Virus record (IMG/VR): IMGVR_UViG_3300021420_000018 | Coordinates: 59,708 to 123,707 of that record | Strand: one strand, 5' to 3' | DNA length: 64,000 bases | DNA from: a virus | Shown: in pieces, positions 11,472 to 27,958 of the stretch | Layout of the letters: each line of letters begins with the position of its first letter | Numbering within the stretch: the first letter of the stretch is position 1 | Translations under genes and position numbers: made by a program | The notes under the pieces: generated by a model | The model's input: the letters and a program-made list of their open reading frames with translations, nothing else | Databases searched by the model: none | What the model was told of the DNA's origin: nothing

Positions 11472-11687
11472 TTACTCCAGGTGAATGAGACGCCTTGGTC
11501 GCACTTCCAGTTCCGCGACTCTTCGGCGCAGTGCTTCGATCTCTTCGTTAGCCAGCGCTTTTTCGTGCATCTTGACGCGGCGTTCCCAGTTCTTTAGCGA
11601 CGTATTGAGACGGCGAATGCGCTTGAGCGTGGCCTTGACCATCTCTTGGGCCTCGGCCAGCTTGCGCTTACGTTTCTCGGTGTCCAC
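11472..11687 (-). CDS. Coiled-coil protein with shared tail RPRRLIHLE
   Basis: 71 residues, almost entirely charged helix (KLAEAQEMVKATLKRIRRLN, LANEEIEALRRRVAELE) with heptad spacing, ending VRPRRLIHLE. That ending is shared with several unrelated proteins in this window (18300, 20222, 21072, 21444, 27332). Short coiled coil plus tail would fit an adaptor or assembly factor. Function unknown. Confidence 0.65.
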   Translation of the reverse strand: MDTEKRKRKLAEAQEMVKATLKRIRRLNTSLKNWERRVKMHEKALANEEIEALRRRVAELEVRPRRLIHLE

Positions 11688-16381: not shown

Positions 16382-16803
16382 TCACCTCCGCACATCAGCA
16401 GTTGGTGACGGCAGTTCGGGCATTCGGCCCAATCACAACCGTCATGGTGGTACTGCCCCGGCAGCACGTTGCAGTCGTGGCAGCGCACATTCTCCCTCGG
16501 ACTGAACCGCGTCTCGGCCGTGTCGAATCGTTTTTCTTGGCCGTAAGGAATCGGATCCAGGAAGAAACTAATCTGGCCGCGAGGCGGGAGAATGATCCCG
16601 CCCGCAGACTCGGTCTTGTGCTCGACCCATTCCACGTAGCCCAGGCGTGTATCACCATTGGCTACGTCATATTGCCAATCCTCAAGTGGGTAAGTATTGG
16701 GGCTGGCGATATTCTTGGTGTCGTCTTTGTGGAACTCGACGGGCACCTTGATGCACCCGTCTGCCGTGAGCATGTCTTGGTTGCAGGCTGGACAGATGGA
16801 CAT
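16372..16803 (-). CDS. Hypothetical protein with two zinc ribbons
   Basis: 143 residues. N-terminal CPACNQDM and a C-terminal Cys/His-rich end: CHDCNVLPGQYHHDGCDW then CPNCRHQLLMCGGEC. The C-terminal pattern recurs in phage hypothetical proteins. It begins at the last base of the Ku stop region (overlap 1 nt), so it is translated from the Ku message. Confidence 0.65.
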   Translation of the reverse strand: MSICPACNQDMLTADGCIKVPVEFHKDDTKNIASPNTYPLEDWQYDVANGDTRLGYVEWVEHKTESAGGIILPPRGQISFFLDPIPYGQEKRFDTAETRFSPRENVRCHDCNVLPGQYHHDGCDWAECPNCRHQLLMCGGECA

Positions 16804-17648
16804 TAGGCCGCTTTGCCTTTCTTGGCCTTCGCCTGCTTCGCCGGCGCCGCGGGAGTGTCCAGCTTGATCGTGCGGCGCGGCTTCGGCGTGGCCAAGGAAG
16901 CAGACAGCGCTGCCATGAGATCTTGCACCGGTTGTGCTGTTACCGCGCTGACCGGCGTGGGTGCCGCGATGGACTTGTCGATCTTGGAAGCGATCAACGT
17001 GTTGAGCCGTTGGTAGTAGCCATCTTCGAAAGTTTCGGGATTGAACTCAGAGTCCAGGCTCTCCGCAAGCTGCCTCGCCAGCTTCAACTCCGATGCTGTG
17101 AGCGAGACCGCCTGCAGATCATCGAACTCTGCGACCTTGGCTATCTCAGTCTGATACCACAGGTAGTGAAGAATGAGACCGTTGCCTTGGGGCCGCAAGA
17201 GGATCATGTTCTCGCGGCCTGACTTGGTAAGCTGCGCGATTGCCACGCGGCCGGTGTCGGTCAGTGTCTTGACGAGTAGGCCGTAGGCTTTCATGCCGAC
17301 ATCTTCCGGCAACAGATAAAACGATTCGGCGAGATAGAGCGAATCGACGTCCGACCACTTCACGCATTCGGTGATCTCCAGCACTTTGCCGCTCGCCGGC
17401 GTGATGCCTTCGATCTCTTCGTCGGTGATCTCGACGATTCGGCCATCGGTTTGGTAGCCCCTGAAGATTTCGGATGCTTCCAACATCTTGGAACAGGCAG
17501 GGCAGTATTTCGGAGATTTTACTGCGCCTTTGCACTCCGTGTGGAACGTGTGCAGCTCGACCCGCTTATCCCGGGCTGCGACATTGAGATAGACGGGGAT
17601 ATTCAGTAGCCCAAACGAAAGATGTCCCTTCCAGACTTTGTGAGCCAT
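16803..17648 (-). CDS. ku: Ku-family DNA end-binding protein
   Basis: 281 residues, the size of bacterial Ku homodimers. The start HKVWKGHLSFGLLNIPVYLN is diagnostic, followed by the Cys-containing ECKGAVKSPKYCPACSK element, the GYQTDGRIVEITDEEIEGI block and LYLAESFYLLPE. The bridge region has GRENMILLRPQGNGLILHYL and the core ends with SEFNPETFEDGYYQRLNTLI. Ku forms a ring on double-strand ends for non-homologous end joining. The tail is Ala/Lys-rich and contains KPRRTIKLD, the shared tail motif. Preceded by the hairpin leader. The WGR ligase lies in the same operon. Confidence 0.95.
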   Translation of the reverse strand: MAHKVWKGHLSFGLLNIPVYLNVAARDKRVELHTFHTECKGAVKSPKYCPACSKMLEASEIFRGYQTDGRIVEITDEEIEGITPASGKVLEITECVKWSDVDSLYLAESFYLLPEDVGMKAYGLLVKTLTDTGRVAIAQLTKSGRENMILLRPQGNGLILHYLWYQTEIAKVAEFDDLQAVSLTASELKLARQLAESLDSEFNPETFEDGYYQRLNTLIASKIDKSIAAPTPVSAVTAQPVQDLMAALSASLATPKPRRTIKLDTPAAPAKQAKAKKGKAA

Positions 17649-18274: not shown

Positions 18275-18303
18275 ATTATAGGTTAGCTACTACGTTATGT
18301 CAA
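18275..18303 (-). promoter_or_regulatory. Consensus sigma-70 promoter
   Basis: Minus strand TTGACA (18303-18298), 17-nt spacer starting TAACGT, TATAAT (18280-18275): a perfect match to both boxes. The -35 box includes the stop codon of the gene upstream. It would drive the Ku-ligase-clamp loader-parB block. Confidence 0.85.
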
Positions 18304-19367
18304 TCGAACGTGATCCTGCGCTTGGGTTGCAGCACCACGAGTGTATCGAGCGCAGCTTTGATGTTTTCAAAGCCCTGCCTTACGTGTTCCCGCAGTTCAT
18401 CATTGGTTCGCAGAGTCACAGCGTTGTGGCCGCCGATCAGGTCTTTCGCCCGATCGACCAGAACCTTCATCTGTAGATCGTTGCCGATGTTGCGCGGGTC
18501 AAAGGTCTCCAAGAACTGCTGGAACTTCGTGATTGAGCCGTCTTGGAATGTTTTCATTCGGCCTTCTTCGTTGGGCGCAAGTCTGTCTGCCAGGTGATTG
18601 ACGAACTCCGACATGTGCCCGCGGAGCAGTTGTCTGTGAACTTGGGTCAGCTCAGCCCAACTCTCTTGCGCCTTTCTGCGTTCCTCGTCGGCCACCTCTT
18701 TACTGATGCCGGCAAGGTTCGGTGCGCTATCGACGTAGACGAATCGCCAATCGACATGGAACGCTGCCATCAGCTCGTCCCTGGTCATGAAGTCGTCGTC
18801 GTTGAACAGAGGACCAAGCCGTTTGGCGGATTCTTCTTTGATCTCGTCGTAACGCTTGCCCAAAGACTTGATGAAAGGCTGGCAGGCCGCGATGCCTTCC
18901 TTGAGTGTGGTGTTGACTTGCTCGACAAACGCGGTCGGCATGATATAGACGCCGCGCTTGATCTGCGATGGAAGAGCCAGGCGTTCGACGTACTGGCGCA
19001 TTTTGCCGTACCGCGACATGATCTCGTCCAACTCTTCGGCTTCGATCAGGCGCTTGGTCAGGTGCAACCATTCCTTATCGACTTGGGCCTCTTTTGCTCT
19101 GCCGCGGGTGTCTCTCTCGACATTGACATCGATGTTCGCGGTGTCTACTTTGCGGCGATTGCCGGTGCCGTGAAACGTGAGGACCATGACGACTGATTTC
19201 GCCATGATGTCTTTCGGCGAAACAAACTCCGGATTCTTCGGCAGTTTGATCGCCGGCAACGGCGGCAACGGTTTGATTTTCTTTTTTGGCGGTAGCGGAT
19301 TTGCCCTGCGAGCCCGGATCGTTTCCCATGCCTTCTTTGCTGCGGCGGTACGTGCTGCTGCTGTCAT
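18300..19367 (-). CDS. Hypothetical protein, DUF3150-like, tail QPKRRITFD
   Basis: 355 residues from ATG 19367, set by the leader. The N-terminus is Lys/Pro-rich (PPKKKIKPLPPLPAIKLPK). The body VVMVLTFHGTGNRRKVDTAN, then long helices (EWLHLTKRLIEAEELDEIMS), resembles the DUF3150 class of phage proteins that accompany AAA+ ATPases; I am not certain of that assignment. It ends VLQPKRRITFD, the shared tail. The context with the AAA+ gene at 21785 supports a role as partner of that ATPase. Confidence 0.6.
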   Translation of the reverse strand: MTAAARTAAAKKAWETIRARRANPLPPKKKIKPLPPLPAIKLPKNPEFVSPKDIMAKSVVMVLTFHGTGNRRKVDTANIDVNVERDTRGRAKEAQVDKEWLHLTKRLIEAEELDEIMSRYGKMRQYVERLALPSQIKRGVYIMPTAFVEQVNTTLKEGIAACQPFIKSLGKRYDEIKEESAKRLGPLFNDDDFMTRDELMAAFHVDWRFVYVDSAPNLAGISKEVADEERRKAQESWAELTQVHRQLLRGHMSEFVNHLADRLAPNEEGRMKTFQDGSITKFQQFLETFDPRNIGNDLQMKVLVDRAKDLIGGHNAVTLRTNDELREHVRQGFENIKAALDTLVVLQPKRRITFD

Positions 19368-19791: not shown

Positions 19792-20069
19792 GCGAACAGC
19801 CTCTTTTCGAGCCACTCGTGTTCGGCTTTGAGCGCTGCGGCTCTGGTTGTGAACGGGCCCAGGATGGGGTTATCGACGTCCAGGTTGAACTGCTTGATCG
19901 CCGGCGACATGTCTGCTATCCAGCGGCCGGATGGCGTTGGCTCAACCAAGCTAGCTCTGGTGATCTCCATCGACGCGTCCGGGAATACGTCCCATAGCGC
20001 GTCGTCGTAGATCGCCAGGATCGTGCCGTTAGGCGCGACTCTTAACTTGAACGTGCTCTGGCTTTTCAT
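19788..20069 (-). CDS. Hypothetical protein
   Basis: 93 residues from ATG 20069, with CGGAG upstream. Strand-rich first half (FKLRVAPNGTILAIYDDALW), then PFTTRAAALKAEHEWLEKRL at the end, a helix often seen at the end of small phage proteins. No family recognised. Confidence 0.6.
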   Translation of the reverse strand: MKSQSTFKLRVAPNGTILAIYDDALWDVFPDASMEITRASLVEPTPSGRWIADMSPAIKQFNLDVDNPILGPFTTRAAALKAEHEWLEKRLFA

Positions 20070-20220
20070 ACATCTCCGACGTTTCAACATCGCTCACCTT
20101 CTTCCCGAGTCCTTCTTCGAACTCGCGAGTTAGTTCTTTGCACGACCGGCCCTTCACGCCCTTCACGGTAACTTTGGCGTTGCCGTCAGGCGCGATGCGG
20201 ATGATCACCGTCTCTTCCAT
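20029..20220 (-). CDS. DUF2997 protein
   Basis: 63 residues from ATG 20220, preceded by a perfect AGGAGG at 6 nt. IIRIAPDGNAKVTVKGVKGR followed by SCKELTREFEEGLG matches the DUF2997 pattern. Members commonly sit beside DUF1257 (Ycf35-like) and AAA+ (Ycf46-like) genes, as here. Function unknown. Confidence 0.8.
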   Translation of the reverse strand: MEETVIIRIAPDGNAKVTVKGVKGRSCKELTREFEEGLGKKVSDVETSEMYEKPEHVQVKSRA

Positions 20221-20221
20221 G

Positions 20222-20635
20222 TCAATCCTCCTCAAGATTGATCTTGCGTTTTGGATTCAACTCCAGCGTCGGTACTTCCTGATCCTCGCGGATGCGTTGC
20301 AGTTCCGCTTGTTGTCTGAGCCCTTTTCTGATGCGATCCACTTCCGCTGCCGTGGCAGGACGTAGACGTTCGGCGGCTTGATAGAACTCAAACACAGCCC
20401 ATACGTGGTCGCACCACAGGTTCGACGATATGGACTGCATTCCATTGATCTGGCCATTCGGACAATCGCACCCCCAGCGGTCGTCCGGGCTTAAGGTGAC
20501 GGTCCACCAACAGCTACTGTTGGCGAAGGCTTTCCATTTACGTTGGCCGAACTCGTTGACGTAGACAGGTGGGTAGAAACGACCGTCAACGGTACGTGCC
20601 GCGACAAACTCAACTCGCGTGATTGTGTATTGCAA
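20222..20635 (-). CDS. SWIM zinc-finger protein, tail NPKRKINLEED
   Basis: 137 residues, start TTG 20635 with GAGG upstream. The SWIM pattern CxC...CxH is seen as WGCDCPNGQINGM...LWCDHVWAVFEF around 54-82; SWIM fingers bind DNA or protein. A helical region (EVDRIRKGLRQQAELQRIRE) and the shared tail LNPKRKINLE follow. It sits in a cluster with two further SWIM proteins (21072, 21444) and DUF1257. Confidence 0.8.
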   Translation of the reverse strand: MQYTITRVEFVAARTVDGRFYPPVYVNEFGQRKWKAFANSSCWWTVTLSPDDRWGCDCPNGQINGMQSISSNLWCDHVWAVFEFYQAAERLRPATAAEVDRIRKGLRQQAELQRIREDQEVPTLELNPKRKINLEED

Positions 20636-20653
20636 CTTTTGTTGCCTCGCAAC

Positions 20654-21061
20654 TTAAGTCGTGCGGGGACGAGTCGCAGTGACCGTGACGTAGCCCTGCT
20701 CGTCGGTTGTCGTCTTAACCTTGAAGCCTTTCTTCTTCCACTGCCTCTTGGTGTATTCGGTGGTGTAGGCTTGCTTCAGTCTCATCGCATCCTGCCCAAC
20801 GAAGTCTTGAAGACCGTAGCCTCGATTGTAAAAATCAGTCTCCAGGCGGAAGCGGCCCGGGCGACCGGTTTCAGAGACGCCGATTTCCATCGCTTGACTG
20901 TTGTTAGGGACGCGAATCGCGTGCTGGCAGCGGCCGTTCTGTCCGGCGAACTGCCTGAACGTTTTCTGGCCCTTGATGTACTCCAATCCAAGGCTCTTTG
21001 CCGCTTCTTCAAGAGCGCCAAGATCGGTGACTTCAAGTTCTATCTGACTGGTGTGGCTCAT
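20654..21061 (-). CDS. DUF1257 (Ycf35-like) protein
   Basis: 135 residues. MSHTSQIELEVTDLGALEEA is the DUF1257 start, followed by FRLETDFYNRGYGLQDFVGQ and RLKQAYTTEYTKRQWKKKGF, also typical. The family is found in plastids, cyanobacteria and phages, commonly next to DUF2997 and an AAA+ ATPase. AGGAGG precedes the ATG. Confidence 0.85.
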   Translation of the reverse strand: MSHTSQIELEVTDLGALEEAAKSLGLEYIKGQKTFRQFAGQNGRCQHAIRVPNNSQAMEIGVSETGRPGRFRLETDFYNRGYGLQDFVGQDAMRLKQAYTTEYTKRQWKKKGFKVKTTTDEQGYVTVTATRPRTT

Positions 21062-21071
21062 CTGTTGCCTC

Positions 21072-21440
21072 CTATTCGAGTGTGATTTTTCTTTTTGGCC
21101 TAAGAACTATTTCCGGTTCCTGCGGCTTCCTGCTTTCGGCACGATGATTAACTTCCTTTATGAGCTGCGCCTTTTTCCCTTCTCCTTGTCTGTGAAAGAT
21201 GAACGCTTGAGCAATGTGTTCGCATGGTGGCGGAACCCATGCAGGCGTCCCTAGCGCGTCTCGTGATGCCGGCGTCCAGGAAGTCTCTTGGCAACTCCCT
21301 GTGCCGCGTGCACCACAATCACACTGCCAAGTCTTGTCCGGGTTGATGCGGGCGATGGCTGGTTCGACATCGCCCCCACTGATTCTGCTGACAGCAAACT
21401 CTACGGTGCCGTCAGGATGTCGCCATACTCGTAGGATCAT
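21072..21440 (-). CDS. SWIM zinc-finger protein, tail RPKRKITLE
   Basis: 122 residues. CDCGARGTGSCQETSW and PPPCEHIAQAFIFHRQ give CxC...C...CxH, a SWIM-type zinc site. The N-terminal half is strands (ILRVWRHPDGTVEFAVSRIS). The end EIVLRPKRKITLE is the clearest copy of the shared tail. Starts just after the stop of the next SWIM gene upstream. Confidence 0.78.
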   Translation of the reverse strand: MILRVWRHPDGTVEFAVSRISGGDVEPAIARINPDKTWQCDCGARGTGSCQETSWTPASRDALGTPAWVPPPCEHIAQAFIFHRQGEGKKAQLIKEVNHRAESRKPQEPEIVLRPKRKITLE

Positions 21441-21443
21441 CGT

Positions 21444-21782
21444 TCAATCCAGGTGGATGAGACGCCGCGTTTGGAGAACGAAGTACGGCTGTGGTGGCGG
21501 CGCGACTGCCGGTGCTCCAGGCCGCCGCCGCGTGGCTGATTGGAATGCGTGCTCTTGTGATGGAGTCGTGCGGGTTTTGTCCACAGGCTCCATCAGCTTA
21601 ACCTGCTCGATGTGCCAACAATCGGCACGCGGCCGCTGTTTGTTGAAGATCCAGCCGCCACAGCTGCATCCCCAGGTGCCGTCTACTTTCATGGCGACGA
21701 CGCGTTTTTTGTCAGGCTCGCTCCGGCTTTCGACTTCCCACCGCGCGATCCACACACCGTTTGCTTCGAGTTTGTTGGGCAT
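21444..21782 (-). CDS. SWIM zinc-finger protein, tail TRRLIHLD
   Basis: 112 residues. WGCSCGGWIFNKQRPRADCW followed by HIEQVKLM gives CxC...CxH. A Pro-rich linker (RRPGAPAVAPPPQPYF) leads to the shared end VLQTRRLIHLD. Same layout as its neighbours, so they are paralogues or share a module. The start overlaps the AAA+ stop region by CAGGTGAAC and ATG. Confidence 0.78.
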   Translation of the reverse strand: MPNKLEANGVWIARWEVESRSEPDKKRVVAMKVDGTWGCSCGGWIFNKQRPRADCWHIEQVKLMEPVDKTRTTPSQEHAFQSATRRRPGAPAVAPPPQPYFVLQTRRLIHLD

Positions 21783-21784
21783 GT

Positions 21785-23371
21785 TCAGTTCACCTGGCCT
21801 TTCGGCGTGCTTCCGCCGCTGCCAGAGGGATCGATCTTGCGACGTCCCTTCACGGCAGCGACCACGCCGACGATCTCGACTTGCGGTTCAGGCTCGAGCC
21901 CTTCCGGCACGTGGTACAGGCCGGAGTAGCTCGCCGAAATGAACTTCTGATCGGCTTGACGGCGCAGATCATCCAGCTTGTCGCGGGAAGAAATGGACAC
22001 CGGCACAATGTACTTCGCCGCTTCCTCGATCGAAGTGCTCAGCACATGCGCGTTGTAACAGCAGTTGCGGATTTCGGCAGGCGTCCAGCCCGTATCGTCA
22101 GGGCGCTTGCCTTTCACATTCCACTTCGCTTCGTACAAGTTCCAGGCCGCTTCCTTCTCAGGCTTGGTCGGCAGATCGAAGAAGAAGGTGCCCGAGCGGA
22201 ACCGGCGCCGCATCTCCGGAGGCAGGCTGTCGAAACGATTGCACGTCGCGATGTAGTAGACCTGGCCCTGGCTGACGGCATGCACCACCTTGAGCGCGGT
22301 GCGGATGTTCTCGCCGGACTGCCCCACAAGCGAGCCCTTCATCCCGGCGAGATCGAAGAAGATCAGCGGCACTTGCCATTCGTTGGCAATCGCTTTCGCA
22401 AGCAGCGTCTTGCCAGAGCCGGCAACGCCCAGGAACGCGCTGCCTTCGGCTTCGGTCTCTTCCATGTCGGTCAGGAGTGCGCCAATCATTTCGGTTGTCG
22501 TGTCTCCTGTGCCTACGGCGCCGAAGTTGGCCATGTGCTTGTCGATCTCATCGATGAATACGACGGCACGGCGTCTGAGAGGACCCTGTCCGCGGCGCAG
22601 ATGGAATCCCTTGCAGTTTCCAAGGCCGATCACGCTGCTGAACGAATCCTTTCCGCGCCAGATGCTCAGGCCTGGCGTCTGTTCGATCTGTTGTCGTTTG
22701 CGTTCCCACAACGCTTCGATATCGAGACCAGCTTTGGTGATGCTCATCGCGCAGACTTGCTCTGCCGGAAACGCAGCGAGGCCGGAAAGCGCTTCGACCG
22801 CACGCTCCACGACTTCGGCCTTTGGCTTCTCTTCGGCTTTGATCAGATTCGCCGCAAGATAGGTTTCGCCCACTATGCCTGCCAGTTGCGCAGCATCGGG
22901 AAGCGGCTCGTCCAGCACCAAAACATCTTGCGCGAGTTCTGGCGGCAGAGTAATCGCTGGACCCACCATGACCAGCGTGCGGGTATCCTCTTTGAACTTG
23001 TCGCGCAAGTTCCAGACAGCTTGGACCACTCGGCTGTCGTGGAAATAGCGATTCAGGTTGGCCATGAAGACGACCGTGCCGGCTGGAATGGCGTTCTTCG
23101 GCGCGATCTTCTTGAGCATGTCGAGAGGATCTTCCAGACGGTTGGCATCTTCGCCGGATCCAGTGATGAGTGACTTCGCGACATTGCGGCCCCGCGGATC
23201 GTTGCAGCCAACAACGCCGTTGACGATATCCCACAGGATCATCGGCGACTCGCCATGCGTCCGGTCGTTCACGATGTTGGCGATGGTCGCTGCATAATCG
23301 GCGGTCCGTACAAAAATGAGCGGAGTCGAAACCTTGCGTGCTGCTTTGAATGTTTCAAGGAAAGTTGGCAT
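21785..23371 (-). CDS. AAA+ ATPase with Walker B before Walker A
   Basis: 528 residues. Residues 1-240 resemble the Ycf46-like N-terminal region (TVVFMANLNRYFHDSRVVQA, VLVLDEPLPDAAQLAGIV). The motor is permuted: Walker B AVVFIDEIDK at 269-278 comes first, then Walker A GVAGSGKT at 315-322, a pore-loop-like MKGSLVGQSGENIR at 344-357, sensor 1 YYIATCN at 372-378 and the arginine finger RRRF near 388-391. The usual AAA+ order is A then B. The C-terminal end has VKGRRKIDPSG, related to the shared tail. Start set by leader. Partner genes DUF1257 and DUF2997 lie downstream. Confidence 0.85.
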   Translation of the reverse strand: MPTFLETFKAARKVSTPLIFVRTADYAATIANIVNDRTHGESPMILWDIVNGVVGCNDPRGRNVAKSLITGSGEDANRLEDPLDMLKKIAPKNAIPAGTVVFMANLNRYFHDSRVVQAVWNLRDKFKEDTRTLVMVGPAITLPPELAQDVLVLDEPLPDAAQLAGIVGETYLAANLIKAEEKPKAEVVERAVEALSGLAAFPAEQVCAMSITKAGLDIEALWERKRQQIEQTPGLSIWRGKDSFSSVIGLGNCKGFHLRRGQGPLRRRAVVFIDEIDKHMANFGAVGTGDTTTEMIGALLTDMEETEAEGSAFLGVAGSGKTLLAKAIANEWQVPLIFFDLAGMKGSLVGQSGENIRTALKVVHAVSQGQVYYIATCNRFDSLPPEMRRRFRSGTFFFDLPTKPEKEAAWNLYEAKWNVKGKRPDDTGWTPAEIRNCCYNAHVLSTSIEEAAKYIVPVSISSRDKLDDLRRQADQKFISASYSGLYHVPEGLEPEPQVEIVGVVAAVKGRRKIDPSGSGGSTPKGQVN

Positions 23372-24756: not shown

Positions 24757-25694
24757 CGCGCACCTTCCCTTTCTGGCTTTGGCAAGCATCCATCGCAGAA
24801 CACGCCGCGTGAAACTGGCCGGTTGCACCGGACTGCGCGGCGCTGCTCGATGGTATGCGTGGGAGTTTTCATCGCCACGCACAGGGTTTGGCTGTAGGCC
24901 ACTTCATGCTCAACCAATCGCTGCGGCAGTGGTGGGATGTTAAACGCGATGTTTGGCACTCCACTCCCTGCTACCAGTGTTTTGCCGGTGCCAGATTGTG
25001 TCAGCATCGGCTTTTCCAACATGCGGTCGAGTGAGCGGCGGCGACGGCGCATGAATCGCCGGAACGATACCCGCGCTGGCTGATAGGCTCGGCTCTTTTG
25101 GACGAGACCCAACTTGCGGCGCAGCTTGATCCAAAACTCCGCGTTCAGCGGCTTGGTATTAAGCCAACGCAGCAAGTCTGGAAATAGATGCTTCTGAAGT
25201 ATCAGTTCCAGGCGTGCCCGGGCCTCGTTCTTGTTCCGCTTGCACGCGACGCAAACGCGGTAATACGGTTTGTCGTGGACGCACGTGAAAATGCTCGCAC
25301 GTCGCCGGTTCCGCTTCTTTTCCGCTTTGCGCCACGCCGCTGATTTGTGAATCCGCGGCTCATCCGACTGCTTCTTGGGAACGAAGAGAGAATGGCGCAT
25401 GTGGAACTTCCGCAGTTCGGACCACGCCACCATCAGCATGACGTTGGTGCGATTCTTCGGGACGCCGAACCGACGACGCCACTGTTCGATTTGAATCGGG
25501 TGTAAGTCTTTGACGCGCCACTGGTGCCACGGCAACTTGGTTCCGGCTAACTGGTGCGCGAGGCGCTTGCCGGCGTGCTTGGCTAACCGCGTGCTGTCTT
25601 TGCTCGCGGTCGATAGACTGCTGCGAAACTCCGATGGCGTCGCCGCGATCTCTCGCTTCGACCAACGACGACTACGCTTCACGTGGCGCGTCAT
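24753..25694 (-). CDS. Hypothetical basic zinc-binding protein
   Basis: 313 residues, strongly basic (RFMRRRRRSLDRML, WRKAEKKRNRRR). Two Cys groups could bind zinc: CVHDKPYYRVCVACKRN near 140 and RCNRPVSRGVFCDGC near the end. No enzyme motif seen. Positive charge suggests nucleic acid binding. Overlaps of 4 nt on both sides. Confidence 0.6.
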   Translation of the reverse strand: MTRHVKRSRRWSKREIAATPSEFRSSLSTASKDSTRLAKHAGKRLAHQLAGTKLPWHQWRVKDLHPIQIEQWRRRFGVPKNRTNVMLMVAWSELRKFHMRHSLFVPKKQSDEPRIHKSAAWRKAEKKRNRRRASIFTCVHDKPYYRVCVACKRNKNEARARLELILQKHLFPDLLRWLNTKPLNAEFWIKLRRKLGLVQKSRAYQPARVSFRRFMRRRRRSLDRMLEKPMLTQSGTGKTLVAGSGVPNIAFNIPPLPQRLVEHEVAYSQTLCVAMKTPTHTIEQRRAVRCNRPVSRGVFCDGCLPKPEREGAR

Positions 25695-25984
25695 GCTGCC
25701 ACCTGTTTTTTCCTTCGGACCGGGATGCCTACCGCTTCCGGCGCGAACTTTTTAATGTGTCGGCAAGGATTCCGCATCCGGATGATCTCGCCGTTCTTCT
25801 GCTTCACGTTTCGCGGGACGATCCACCCCAAACAGGAGCAGGCCCACTTGCCATTCTTGCAAGTGACGGTGTAATGACGGCGCGCGTCGCTCGACGAAGT
25901 GACTTCGATTCTCCGAACACCGGCGCGCTTGGAGGACCGAATCACGCGGATTGGCTTCGGCTCTTGCCAGTAGTGTCGGCTCAT
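25691..25984 (-). CDS. SWIM zinc-finger protein (fourth copy)
   Basis: 97 residues from ATG 25984 (ATGA overlap). HYTVTCKNGKWACSCLGWIV then RNPCRHIKKFAPEA gives the CxC...CxH SWIM site. It ends PVRRKKQVAA, basic but without the PxRxIxL tail of the other three. Cluster position separates it from them by about 4 kb. Confidence 0.75.
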   Translation of the reverse strand: MSRHYWQEPKPIRVIRSSKRAGVRRIEVTSSSDARRHYTVTCKNGKWACSCLGWIVPRNVKQKNGEIIRMRNPCRHIKKFAPEAVGIPVRRKKQVAA

Positions 25985-26277
25985 GCTGCCACCTCTGCGC
26001 GCCACTTCTTGAAGACCAGCTTCGCGTGGTAGGACTTGTGGCAGGATTGGTGCGCTACGCGGCGGTTAGCTTTCCGATTGTCGTCGTGGTTACCGTTCTT
26101 GTGATGGATGGTGATATCCATGTCGAAGATCGGCGCTCTGGCGTTTCCGAACTTCGGTTCGATATCCGTAGGAAGAAATCCCTTGTTGCAGAAGAAGCAC
26201 TTTTCGCCTTCAAGAAAATGCCAGAGCAACTCGCGGCCCTTGTTCAGCTCCATCTCAGTTCGTCTCGACATTGCCAT
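25981..26277 (-). CDS. HNH endonuclease-like protein
   Basis: 98 residues. CFFCNKGF, then MDITIHHKNGNHDDNRKANR and VAHQSCHKSYH, make a compact HNH with zinc. It is the first gene after the promoter at 26344. A second Met (MSRRTEM) two codons in is an equally good start. Likely a small homing-type or repair nuclease. Confidence 0.75.
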   Translation of the reverse strand: MAMSRRTEMELNKGRELLWHFLEGEKCFFCNKGFLPTDIEPKFGNARAPIFDMDITIHHKNGNHDDNRKANRRVAHQSCHKSYHAKLVFKKWRAEVAA

Positions 26278-27331: not shown

Positions 27332-27958
27332 CTAGTCCAAAGAAATGGCTCGCCGGGGCCTCGCGAAAATGGGCTCTTTTCGCTGGGTTCCAATGGTCTG
27401 ATAGCCGCTCTCTTCAATGGTCTTGCACGCCTGGCACAGAGGACGCTGATAGGCTGAATCAAAAAGCTGGCCGCAGTTCGTGCACCGCAGCTTGAATGTC
27501 TGTGTCGGCTCAACCTGGACGCCATCGGTATTGAATCCGCGGTGTCGTAGCTCGGCGCCTACGCTCTCAAACAGCCAGTTGAACTGAGTCCTATCAATAG
27601 GGCAGTTTGAGAAAAACCATAGCAGGTAATCATTGGGTAGCACGGAGACTTGTGCGCCGCGGAACTTACCGAGTGGCATGATCGCTCTGCCGTGTCTGCT
27701 CATGGCGTCTTGTGCGGCGGCGTGCAGGACGCGGCCGATTCGTTCCCGTTCGAATCCGGTGAGGATTTTAGCATCGCGAATACCGTGCCGTTTACGTAAG
27801 TGGTGTTTCAATCCGCAGGAGGCCCATCCGACACTCGTATACCAGCGCAGGATTCTGGCCGGCTCGCATCTGAAACACCTGGCGTAATCTCTTTCTTCGT
27901 TCCGTGAAAGATGGAAGCTGCCGAATAGCTCGCCATCATAGCCGGTGTTATTTGGCAT
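27332..27958 (-). CDS. DUF3820-like zinc protein, tail RPRRAISLD
   Basis: 208 residues. An N-terminal CxxC plus His element (CFRCEPARILRW, LKHHLRKRHG) looks like a BED or C2H2 finger. IMPLGKFRGAQVSVLPNDYL then LWFFSNCP matches the DUF3820 core at about 93-120. A C-terminal zinc ribbon (CTNCGQLF, CQACKTIE) precedes the shared tail ARPRRAISLD. The combination suggests DNA or RNA binding. Confidence 0.7.
   Translation of the reverse strand: MPNNTGYDGELFGSFHLSRNEERDYARCFRCEPARILRWYTSVGWASCGLKHHLRKRHGIRDAKILTGFERERIGRVLHAAAQDAMSRHGRAIMPLGKFRGAQVSVLPNDYLLWFFSNCPIDRTQFNWLFESVGAELRHRGFNTDGVQVEPTQTFKLRCTNCGQLFDSAYQRPLCQACKTIEESGYQTIGTQRKEPIFARPRRAISLD

What the first reader, a model, noticed from the sequence alone, without database searches (positions are those of the whole stretch)
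20029..23371. DUF2997-SWIM-DUF1257-SWIM-SWIM-AAA+ module
Six adjacent genes: DUF2997, SWIM, DUF1257, SWIM, SWIM, permuted AAA+. In plastids and cyanobacteria DUF1257 and AAA+ homologues are Ycf35 and Ycf46. Here three small SWIM proteins are inserted between, and all carry the shared tail. It looks like one multi-protein machine of unknown function.
Basis: partly seen in the sequence, partly recalled or inferred. Interest (0 to 1): 0.75.

Follow-up and report, generated by a model that had tools for sequence, protein, structure and literature searches.

The report
Phage AAA+ module with shared tail-tag
This stretch of a large phage genome encodes a conserved ATP-driven protein machine, and several unrelated phage proteins, the machine's motor family among them, end in the same short tail, so the tail probably works as a docking tag that brings phage proteins to a common partner.

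Summary
The six-gene cassette is real and tightly packed. In transcription order it is AAA+, SWIM, SWIM, DUF1257, SWIM, DUF2997. The full order recurs in a 165-kb IMG/VR phage whose AAA+ is 72% identical. Of the linked genes, 211 of 213 are on the same strand.

The AAA+ is not circularly permuted. Its Walker-B strand-helix segment sits before Walker A, and AlphaFold folds this confidently. Plasmid and host-chromosome homologues keep the normal order.

The strongest result is the tail, R-x-[IVLF]-x-[LIVF]-[DE], in a disordered C-terminus. It occurs on AAA+ (44/85), DUF3150 (56/67) and SWIM (18/22) proteins, against 2.8, 4.6 and 1.7 expected. DUF1257 (3/69) and DUF2997 (0/49) lack it. Some phages carry it on about ten proteins. 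Each genome has its own dialect, matched between unrelated proteins (0 of 5000 shuffles).

Best explanation: a Cdc48-like, mobile-element-encoded remodelling machine with a common tail-docking site. The tail is shown. Binding and remodelling are inferred, and the receptor is unresolved. I found no published description.

The parts
21785..23371 (-). AAA+ ATPase, 528 aa: N-terminal region plus AAA+ core in permuted order; internal tail relic GRRKID at aa 509-514
22541..22564 (-). Walker B motif VVFIDEID (aa 270-277), before Walker A
   Evidence: AF2 strand 269-273
22406..22429 (-). Walker A motif GVAGSGKT (aa 315-322)
   Evidence: AF2 strand 309-315
22235..22252 (-). sensor-1 region IATCNR (aa 374-379)
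21444..21782 (-). SWIM protein 1, 112 aa, tail QTRRLIHLD
21072..21440 (-). SWIM protein 2, 122 aa, tail RPKRKITLE
20654..21061 (-). DUF1257 (Ycf35-like) protein, 135 aa, no tail; AF2 pLDDT 95.7, no PDB fold match
20222..20635 (-). SWIM protein 3, 137 aa (TTG start), tail NPKRKINLEED
20029..20220 (-). DUF2997 protein, 63 aa from the ATG at 20220 (ORF extends to 20235), no tail
18300..19367 (-). DUF3150-type helical protein (about 355 aa; ORF to 19493), tail QPKRRITFD; fourth core component
11472..11687 (-). 71-aa coiled protein with tail RPRRLIHLE
27332..27958 (-). 208-aa DUF3820-like protein with tail ARPRRAISLD; a similar short protein with a tail is in G064 (L056 phage)
   Evidence: the DUF3820 likeness is from reading the sequence, not from a family search
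16803..17648 (-). phage Ku protein with tail-like PRRTIKLD about 18 aa before its end

Best explanation
The cassette is part of a phage/plasmid-encoded AAA+ remodelling machine. Its core is a tandem, Cdc48-like AAA+ ATPase with DUF1257, DUF2997 and DUF3150; SWIM zinc-finger proteins are optional clients or adaptors. AAA+, DUF3150, SWIM and, in some phages, further proteins (terminase and others) end in a flexible tail R-x-[IVLF]-x-[LIVF]-[DE]. The tail docks as a short linear motif onto one shared site, most likely on the machine itself (AAA+ body, or the two core proteins that never carry a tail, DUF1257 and DUF2997). Tagged phage proteins are thereby gathered on, or remodelled by, the ATPase. 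SHOWN: gene order and linkage, the permuted yet well-folded (predicted) AAA+ core, the tail, its restriction to certain components, and its genome-specific dialects. INFERRED: that the tail is a docking tag, that the receptor belongs to the module, and that the outcome is ATP-driven assembly or remodelling.
For: Linkage: 71/89, 49/89 and 67/89 AAA+ loci have DUF1257, DUF2997 and DUF3150 within 6 kb; 211/213 on the same strand. Full order repeated in L035. Tail statistics: AAA+ 44/85, DUF3150 56/67, SWIM 18/22, against shuffle means 2.8, 4.6 and 1.7; DUF1257 3/69 and DUF2997 0/49 are at chance. This holds after thinning at 60% identity (36/65, 40/48, 11/13). Dialect match between non-homologous proteins of one locus: AAA+ vs DUF3150 4.88 vs null 1.60 (sd 0.70), 0/5000; within-genome tail similarity 0/2000. 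Genome-wide: 70 tails in 1476 genes of 11 module phages (21.8 expected) vs 12 in 824 genes of 10 control records (12.6 expected), Fisher P 1.9e-5. Tail disordered in the model (pLDDT 37-51 at aa 491-528) beside a confident core. Fold search: two-domain Cdc48/p97/Rix7 matches. Synonymous codons differ among window tails, so not recent copying. Host-chromosome homologues whose C-terminus could be read lack the tail.
Against: No binding, ATPase or remodelling data exist. The AAA+ carries the tail itself, so it is not simply the receptor. Distance correlations do not single out the receptor: tail divergence follows AAA+ divergence at least as well as DUF1257 or DUF2997. The window's AAA+ and G061's have lost the clean terminal tail. 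In several module phages (G061, G065, G070, G071, G072) the genome-wide tail count is not significant. Hosts differ between phages, so host-specific receptors could also give dialects.
Confidence: 0.55

Rival explanations
1. The tail binds a host protein (polymerase, clamp, protease or chaperone). The AAA+ cassette is linked only because its products are also clients of that host factor.
For: Dialects could follow the host (each phage has another host). The tail also occurs on proteins outside the module, such as a terminase.
Against: Control phages, including a Sinorhizobium phage and 8 IMG/VR records that share a gene family but have no AAA+, show no tail excess (12 vs 12.6 expected). That family (A9) has tails in the module phages G066, G067 and RHph_I4, but no strict R-x-hydrophobic tail in 44 contigs without AAA+ (the family was chosen because of tailed members, which biases the positive side).
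Confidence: 0.2
2. The tail is a degradation signal: the AAA+ (or a host protease) recognises it and removes phage proteins on schedule.
For: C-terminal hydrophobic tags are classic AAA+ degrons (general knowledge); a Cdc48-like unfoldase is encoded next to it.
Against: No protease gene was seen in the cassettes inspected. The AAA+ and DUF3150 themselves carry the tag, and it is kept on packaging genes such as terminase, which are needed late.
Confidence: 0.12
3. A Ycf35/Ycf46-related metabolic gene set carried by the phage, acting in redox or photosynthesis-like regulation.
For: DUF2997-ycf35-fed7 clusters in cyanobacteria (PMC4284462). Ycf46 inactivation lowers carbonic anhydrase activity (PMC7496141, citing Jiang 2015).
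Against: Phages and plasmids with the module infect or live in Acidobacteriota, Rhizobium, Nitrospirota, Actinomycetota and others. Redox genes adjoin only in a few plasmids (4Fe-4S domain genes).
Confidence: 0.06
4. The tail is chance or shared composition of basic C-termini, or recent copying of gene ends.
For: Basic C-termini are common; the motif is short.
Against: Shuffles that keep each C-terminus's composition, interior windows, control phages and untailed module members all give chance levels. Codons differ between tails.
Confidence: 0.02

Closest known systems
Cdc48/p97, Rix7 (tandem AAA+ remodelases with motif-bearing cofactors)
   Same: Best structural matches over both halves; cofactors of p97 share short linear motifs (general knowledge)
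   Different: Walker-B segment transposed before Walker A; whole-chain TM only 0.3-0.45; no ubiquitin system seen; the tail is on the ATPase family as well as on partners
Ycf46 AAA+ and Ycf35 (DUF1257) of cyanobacteria and plastids
   Same: DUF1257 family above Pfam cut-off; DUF2997 beside ycf35 in cyanobacteria
   Different: Host-chromosome homologue appears to have normal motif order and has no tail; here the ATPase, DUF1257, DUF2997 and DUF3150 are one cassette on mobile elements
HbYX C-terminal docking motif of proteasome activators
   Same: Different activators, including an AAA+ ring, share a C-terminal motif that docks to one partner (general knowledge)
   Different: HbYX needs the very last residues; this motif may be followed by 0-7 residues; no proteasome partner seen
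IxI/V C-terminal motif of small heat-shock proteins
   Same: R-x-I-x-I/V-like hydrophobic pattern in a flexible tail, a beta-strand-addition mode
   Different: No small heat-shock protein was noted in the module; the resemblance is from memory, not tested
IetA/IteA anti-phage ATPase (IetAS; SGI1 sgiAT)
   Same: AAA family; weak P-loop match
   Different: Match covers only about 50 residues around Walker A; no S8 protease partner noted; carried by phages

Membership tests
AAA+ ATPase (classical AAA clade) | Walker A, Walker B, sensor 1 and AAA+ fold | tested here: met
AAA+ ATPase (classical AAA clade) | Canonical order Walker A - Walker B - sensor 1 | tested here: not met
   Walker B segment precedes Walker A
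Ycf46 | Clear sequence membership in the Ycf46 family | tested here: inconclusive
   Distant homologues with normal order in host genus and plasmids; no NCBIfam Ycf46 model among the hits
DUF1257 / Ycf35 | Pfam PF06868 gathering score | tested here: met
   26.4 vs 22.2 bits; Pfam's model misses most phage members (3 of 12 records)
DUF2997 | Pfam PF11211 gathering score | tested here: met
   51.2 vs 24.1 bits
DUF3150 | Pfam PF11348 match | tested here: inconclusive
   Window member has no direct hit; 10 of 25 aligned relatives match, best 1e-14
SWIM zinc finger | CxC...CxH zinc ligands | tested here: met
   C38, C40, C54, H56 invariant in 18 proteins
SWIM zinc finger | Pfam PF04434 gathering score for the three cassette proteins | tested here: not met
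   Best 18.4 vs 19.6 bits; two proteins without hit
HbYX docking motif | Hydrophobic-Tyr-X as last three residues | tested here: not met
   No conserved Tyr; 0-7 residues follow the motif
Known anti-phage defence system | PADLOC match of components | tested here: not met
   Only weak P-loop match to IetA; none for the other proteins

The most novel reading that the evidence does not exclude
Some phages and plasmids mark a chosen part of their own proteome with a genome-specific C-terminal tag that is read by their own AAA+/DUF1257/DUF2997 machine: a self-labelling and recruitment system not described before, driven by an AAA+ whose core has a non-circular segment transposition.
Probability: 0.45. 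Interest if true: 0.92.

Novelty: categorically new. Interest (0 to 1): 0.8.

Why it matters
A short tag shared by unrelated proteins of one phage and co-varying with the rest of a conserved AAA+ module makes a set of uncharacterised families (DUF1257, DUF2997, DUF3150, phage SWIM proteins) testable at once, through peptide binding. It offers a handle on Ycf35/Ycf46, conserved in cyanobacteria and plastids with no settled mechanism. It also gives a natural case of an AAA+ core conserved with its Walker-B segment moved, which bears on how P-loop folds evolve.

Tried and rejected
Chance or compositional origin of the tail: rejected by shuffles, interior windows and control phages. Recent copying of 3' gene ends: rejected by codon differences. 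AAA+ permutation as assembly or local artefact: rejected, same order in dozens of distant phages. Known defence system: no match. Naming the receptor by distance correlation (Mantel): inconclusive. DUF1257 fold to suggest a function: no PDB match below 1e-3 and a single viral match. The genome-contig scan gave few relatives. Literature: one search on permuted AAA+/P-loop wording and one on DUF3150 found nothing; only open-licence PMC was searchable.

Full report
Observation. The window is bases 59708-123707 of a 123,707-base contig (C17) of a 6.8-Mb bacterial assembly. The called genes in the window are on the minus strand. C17 is phage: it encodes a terminase large subunit, tail proteins, a RecT and endolysin-like genes, and much of it is matched by a 164,879-base IMG/VR contig with a 97-base end repeat, G061/L035. 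The six genes of the finding are where stated, nearly without spacers. Pfam supports DUF2997, DUF1257 and AAA. The SWIM assignments are weak by Pfam but the CxC/CxH ligands are invariant across 18 related proteins.

Conservation. The full order AAA-SWIM-SWIM-DUF1257-SWIM-DUF2997 recurs in G061/L035, where the AAA+ is 72% identical. In Tunturiibacter phage Tunturi_3, Rhizobium phage RHph_I4, a Nitrospirota plasmid and an Actinomycetota plasmid, AAA+, DUF1257 and DUF2997 stand together without SWIM (in the Actinomycetota plasmid the DUF1257 member was recognised by my profile). A profile search of IMG/VR gave 80 loci. In 89 loci, profiles built here find DUF1257 in 71, DUF2997 in 49, a DUF3150-type protein in 67 and a SWIM protein in 15 within 6 kb of the AAA+, with 211 of 213 on the same strand. 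Ten of 25 aligned DUF3150-type proteins match Pfam DUF3150, though the window's own does not. The window member is at 18300-19367. So the core is AAA+, DUF1257, DUF2997 and DUF3150, and SWIM proteins are recurrent accessories. PHROGs and NCBIfam have no function for them.

AAA+ architecture. Alignment with the plasmid homologue shows that the Walker-B strand and following helix have moved from after the Walker-A half to before it. This is a segment transposition, not a circular permutation. The same order was read in 60 of 71 homologues that could be classified; the 11 with standard order are plasmid genes and a few others. The host genus carries a chromosomal homologue whose matches skip the transposed segment, consistent with standard order. 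AlphaFold2 models the window protein with mean pLDDT 87.7 and pTM 0.80, with most core blocks above 90; the C-terminal 33 residues are disordered. Foldseek aligns it across both AAA+ domains of Cdc48, p97 and Rix7, at whole-chain TM of only 0.3-0.45, so the N-terminal half is probably a degenerate AAA+ domain (inference).

The tail. The motif R-x-[IVLFM]-x-[LIVFM] in the last 14 residues occurs in 44 of 85 AAA+, 56 of 67 DUF3150 and 18 of 22 SWIM proteins, against shuffle means of 2.8, 4.6 and 1.7. DUF1257 (3 of 69) and DUF2997 (0 of 49) are at chance. The result survives thinning to one locus per 60% identity cluster. The three carrier families show no homology to one another. In the window the tails use different synonymous codons.

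Dialects. Tails within one genome resemble each other: LRAIEL in G066, RRIDLD in G067, KRAITL in G064, IRKFDL in G069, RRKVRL-like in RHph_I4, PGKRKIILD in an Aeromonas plasmid. The AAA+ tail resembles the DUF3150 tail of its own locus more than those of other loci (4.88 vs 1.60, sd 0.70; 0 of 5000 shuffles), and SWIM tails do likewise. Shared ancestry alone does not make non-homologous tails alike.

Genome-wide use. With one gene-calling script, 11 module phages have 70 tailed genes in 1476 (21.8 expected from protein interiors), and 10 control records have 12 in 824 (12.6 expected); Fisher P 1.9e-5. Individually significant: C17, G064, G066, G067, G069, RHph_I4; not significant: G061, G065, G070, G071, G072. 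A phage protein family (A9) with tails in three module phages has no strict tail in 44 contigs lacking the AAA+. It was chosen because of tailed members, two further module genomes (G069/G157) have only a partial, longer homologue whose end was not resolved, and three contigs closely related to G067 carry the tail although no AAA+ is on the fragment, so this is supporting evidence only.

Mechanism. The simplest reading is a docking tag in a disordered C-terminus that binds one common site. Because DUF1257 and DUF2997 are the core members that never carry it, they are candidate receptors; but tail divergence tracks the AAA+ body at least as well, so the receptor is unresolved. DUF1257 is predicted with pLDDT 95.7 as a compact alpha/beta fold without a solved relative. 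Remodelling or assembly of tagged phage proteins by a Cdc48-like ATPase is inference from the fold.

Comparison with what is known. Ycf35 is DUF1257 and lies beside DUF2997 in cyanobacteria (PMC4284462). Ycf46 is linked to carbon use without a mechanism (PMC7496141). Shared C-terminal docking motifs are known (HbYX, p97 cofactor motifs, small heat-shock protein IxI; general knowledge), but none fits in detail. Papers that mention DUF1257 or DUF2997 do not describe this module, and none was found on DUF3150 or on a permuted AAA+, within an open-licence library and mostly narrow wording.

Limits. Gene calls are heuristic. Most IMG/VR records are fragments. The window's own AAA+ has only an internal relic of the tail. 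No experiment shows binding.

Noticed in passing
C17:46149-49052 (+), = L013:6149-9052, outside the window: Terminase large subunit with an intein-like insert (CFVKGTKVLTRRG...VHNC) and the tail IGGRRAIDLRK at its end.
   Followed up: partly
window 16803-17648: Phage-encoded Ku protein near the module, with a tail-like PRRTIKLD about 18 residues before the end; conserved in G061 (76% identity).
   Followed up: partly
window 25691-26005: A further SWIM-type protein (Pfam SWIM above cut-off) without the tail.
   Followed up: no
L009 23690-24649 (Tunturi_3 XOB77277.1): The DUF3150-type homologue is annotated 'HNH endonuclease', probably a misannotation.
   Followed up: partly
L051 (Pseudanabaena plasmid): DUF1257, DUF2997 and AAA+ follow GrpE and Hsp70 genes, a possible chaperone link.
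   Followed up: no
L054 5444-6616 and 6965-7495 (Aeromonas plasmid pAhD4-1): Two membrane-type proteins downstream of the AAA+ end in PGKRKIILD and PGKRKVILD, so the tail also occurs on conjugative plasmids.
   Followed up: partly
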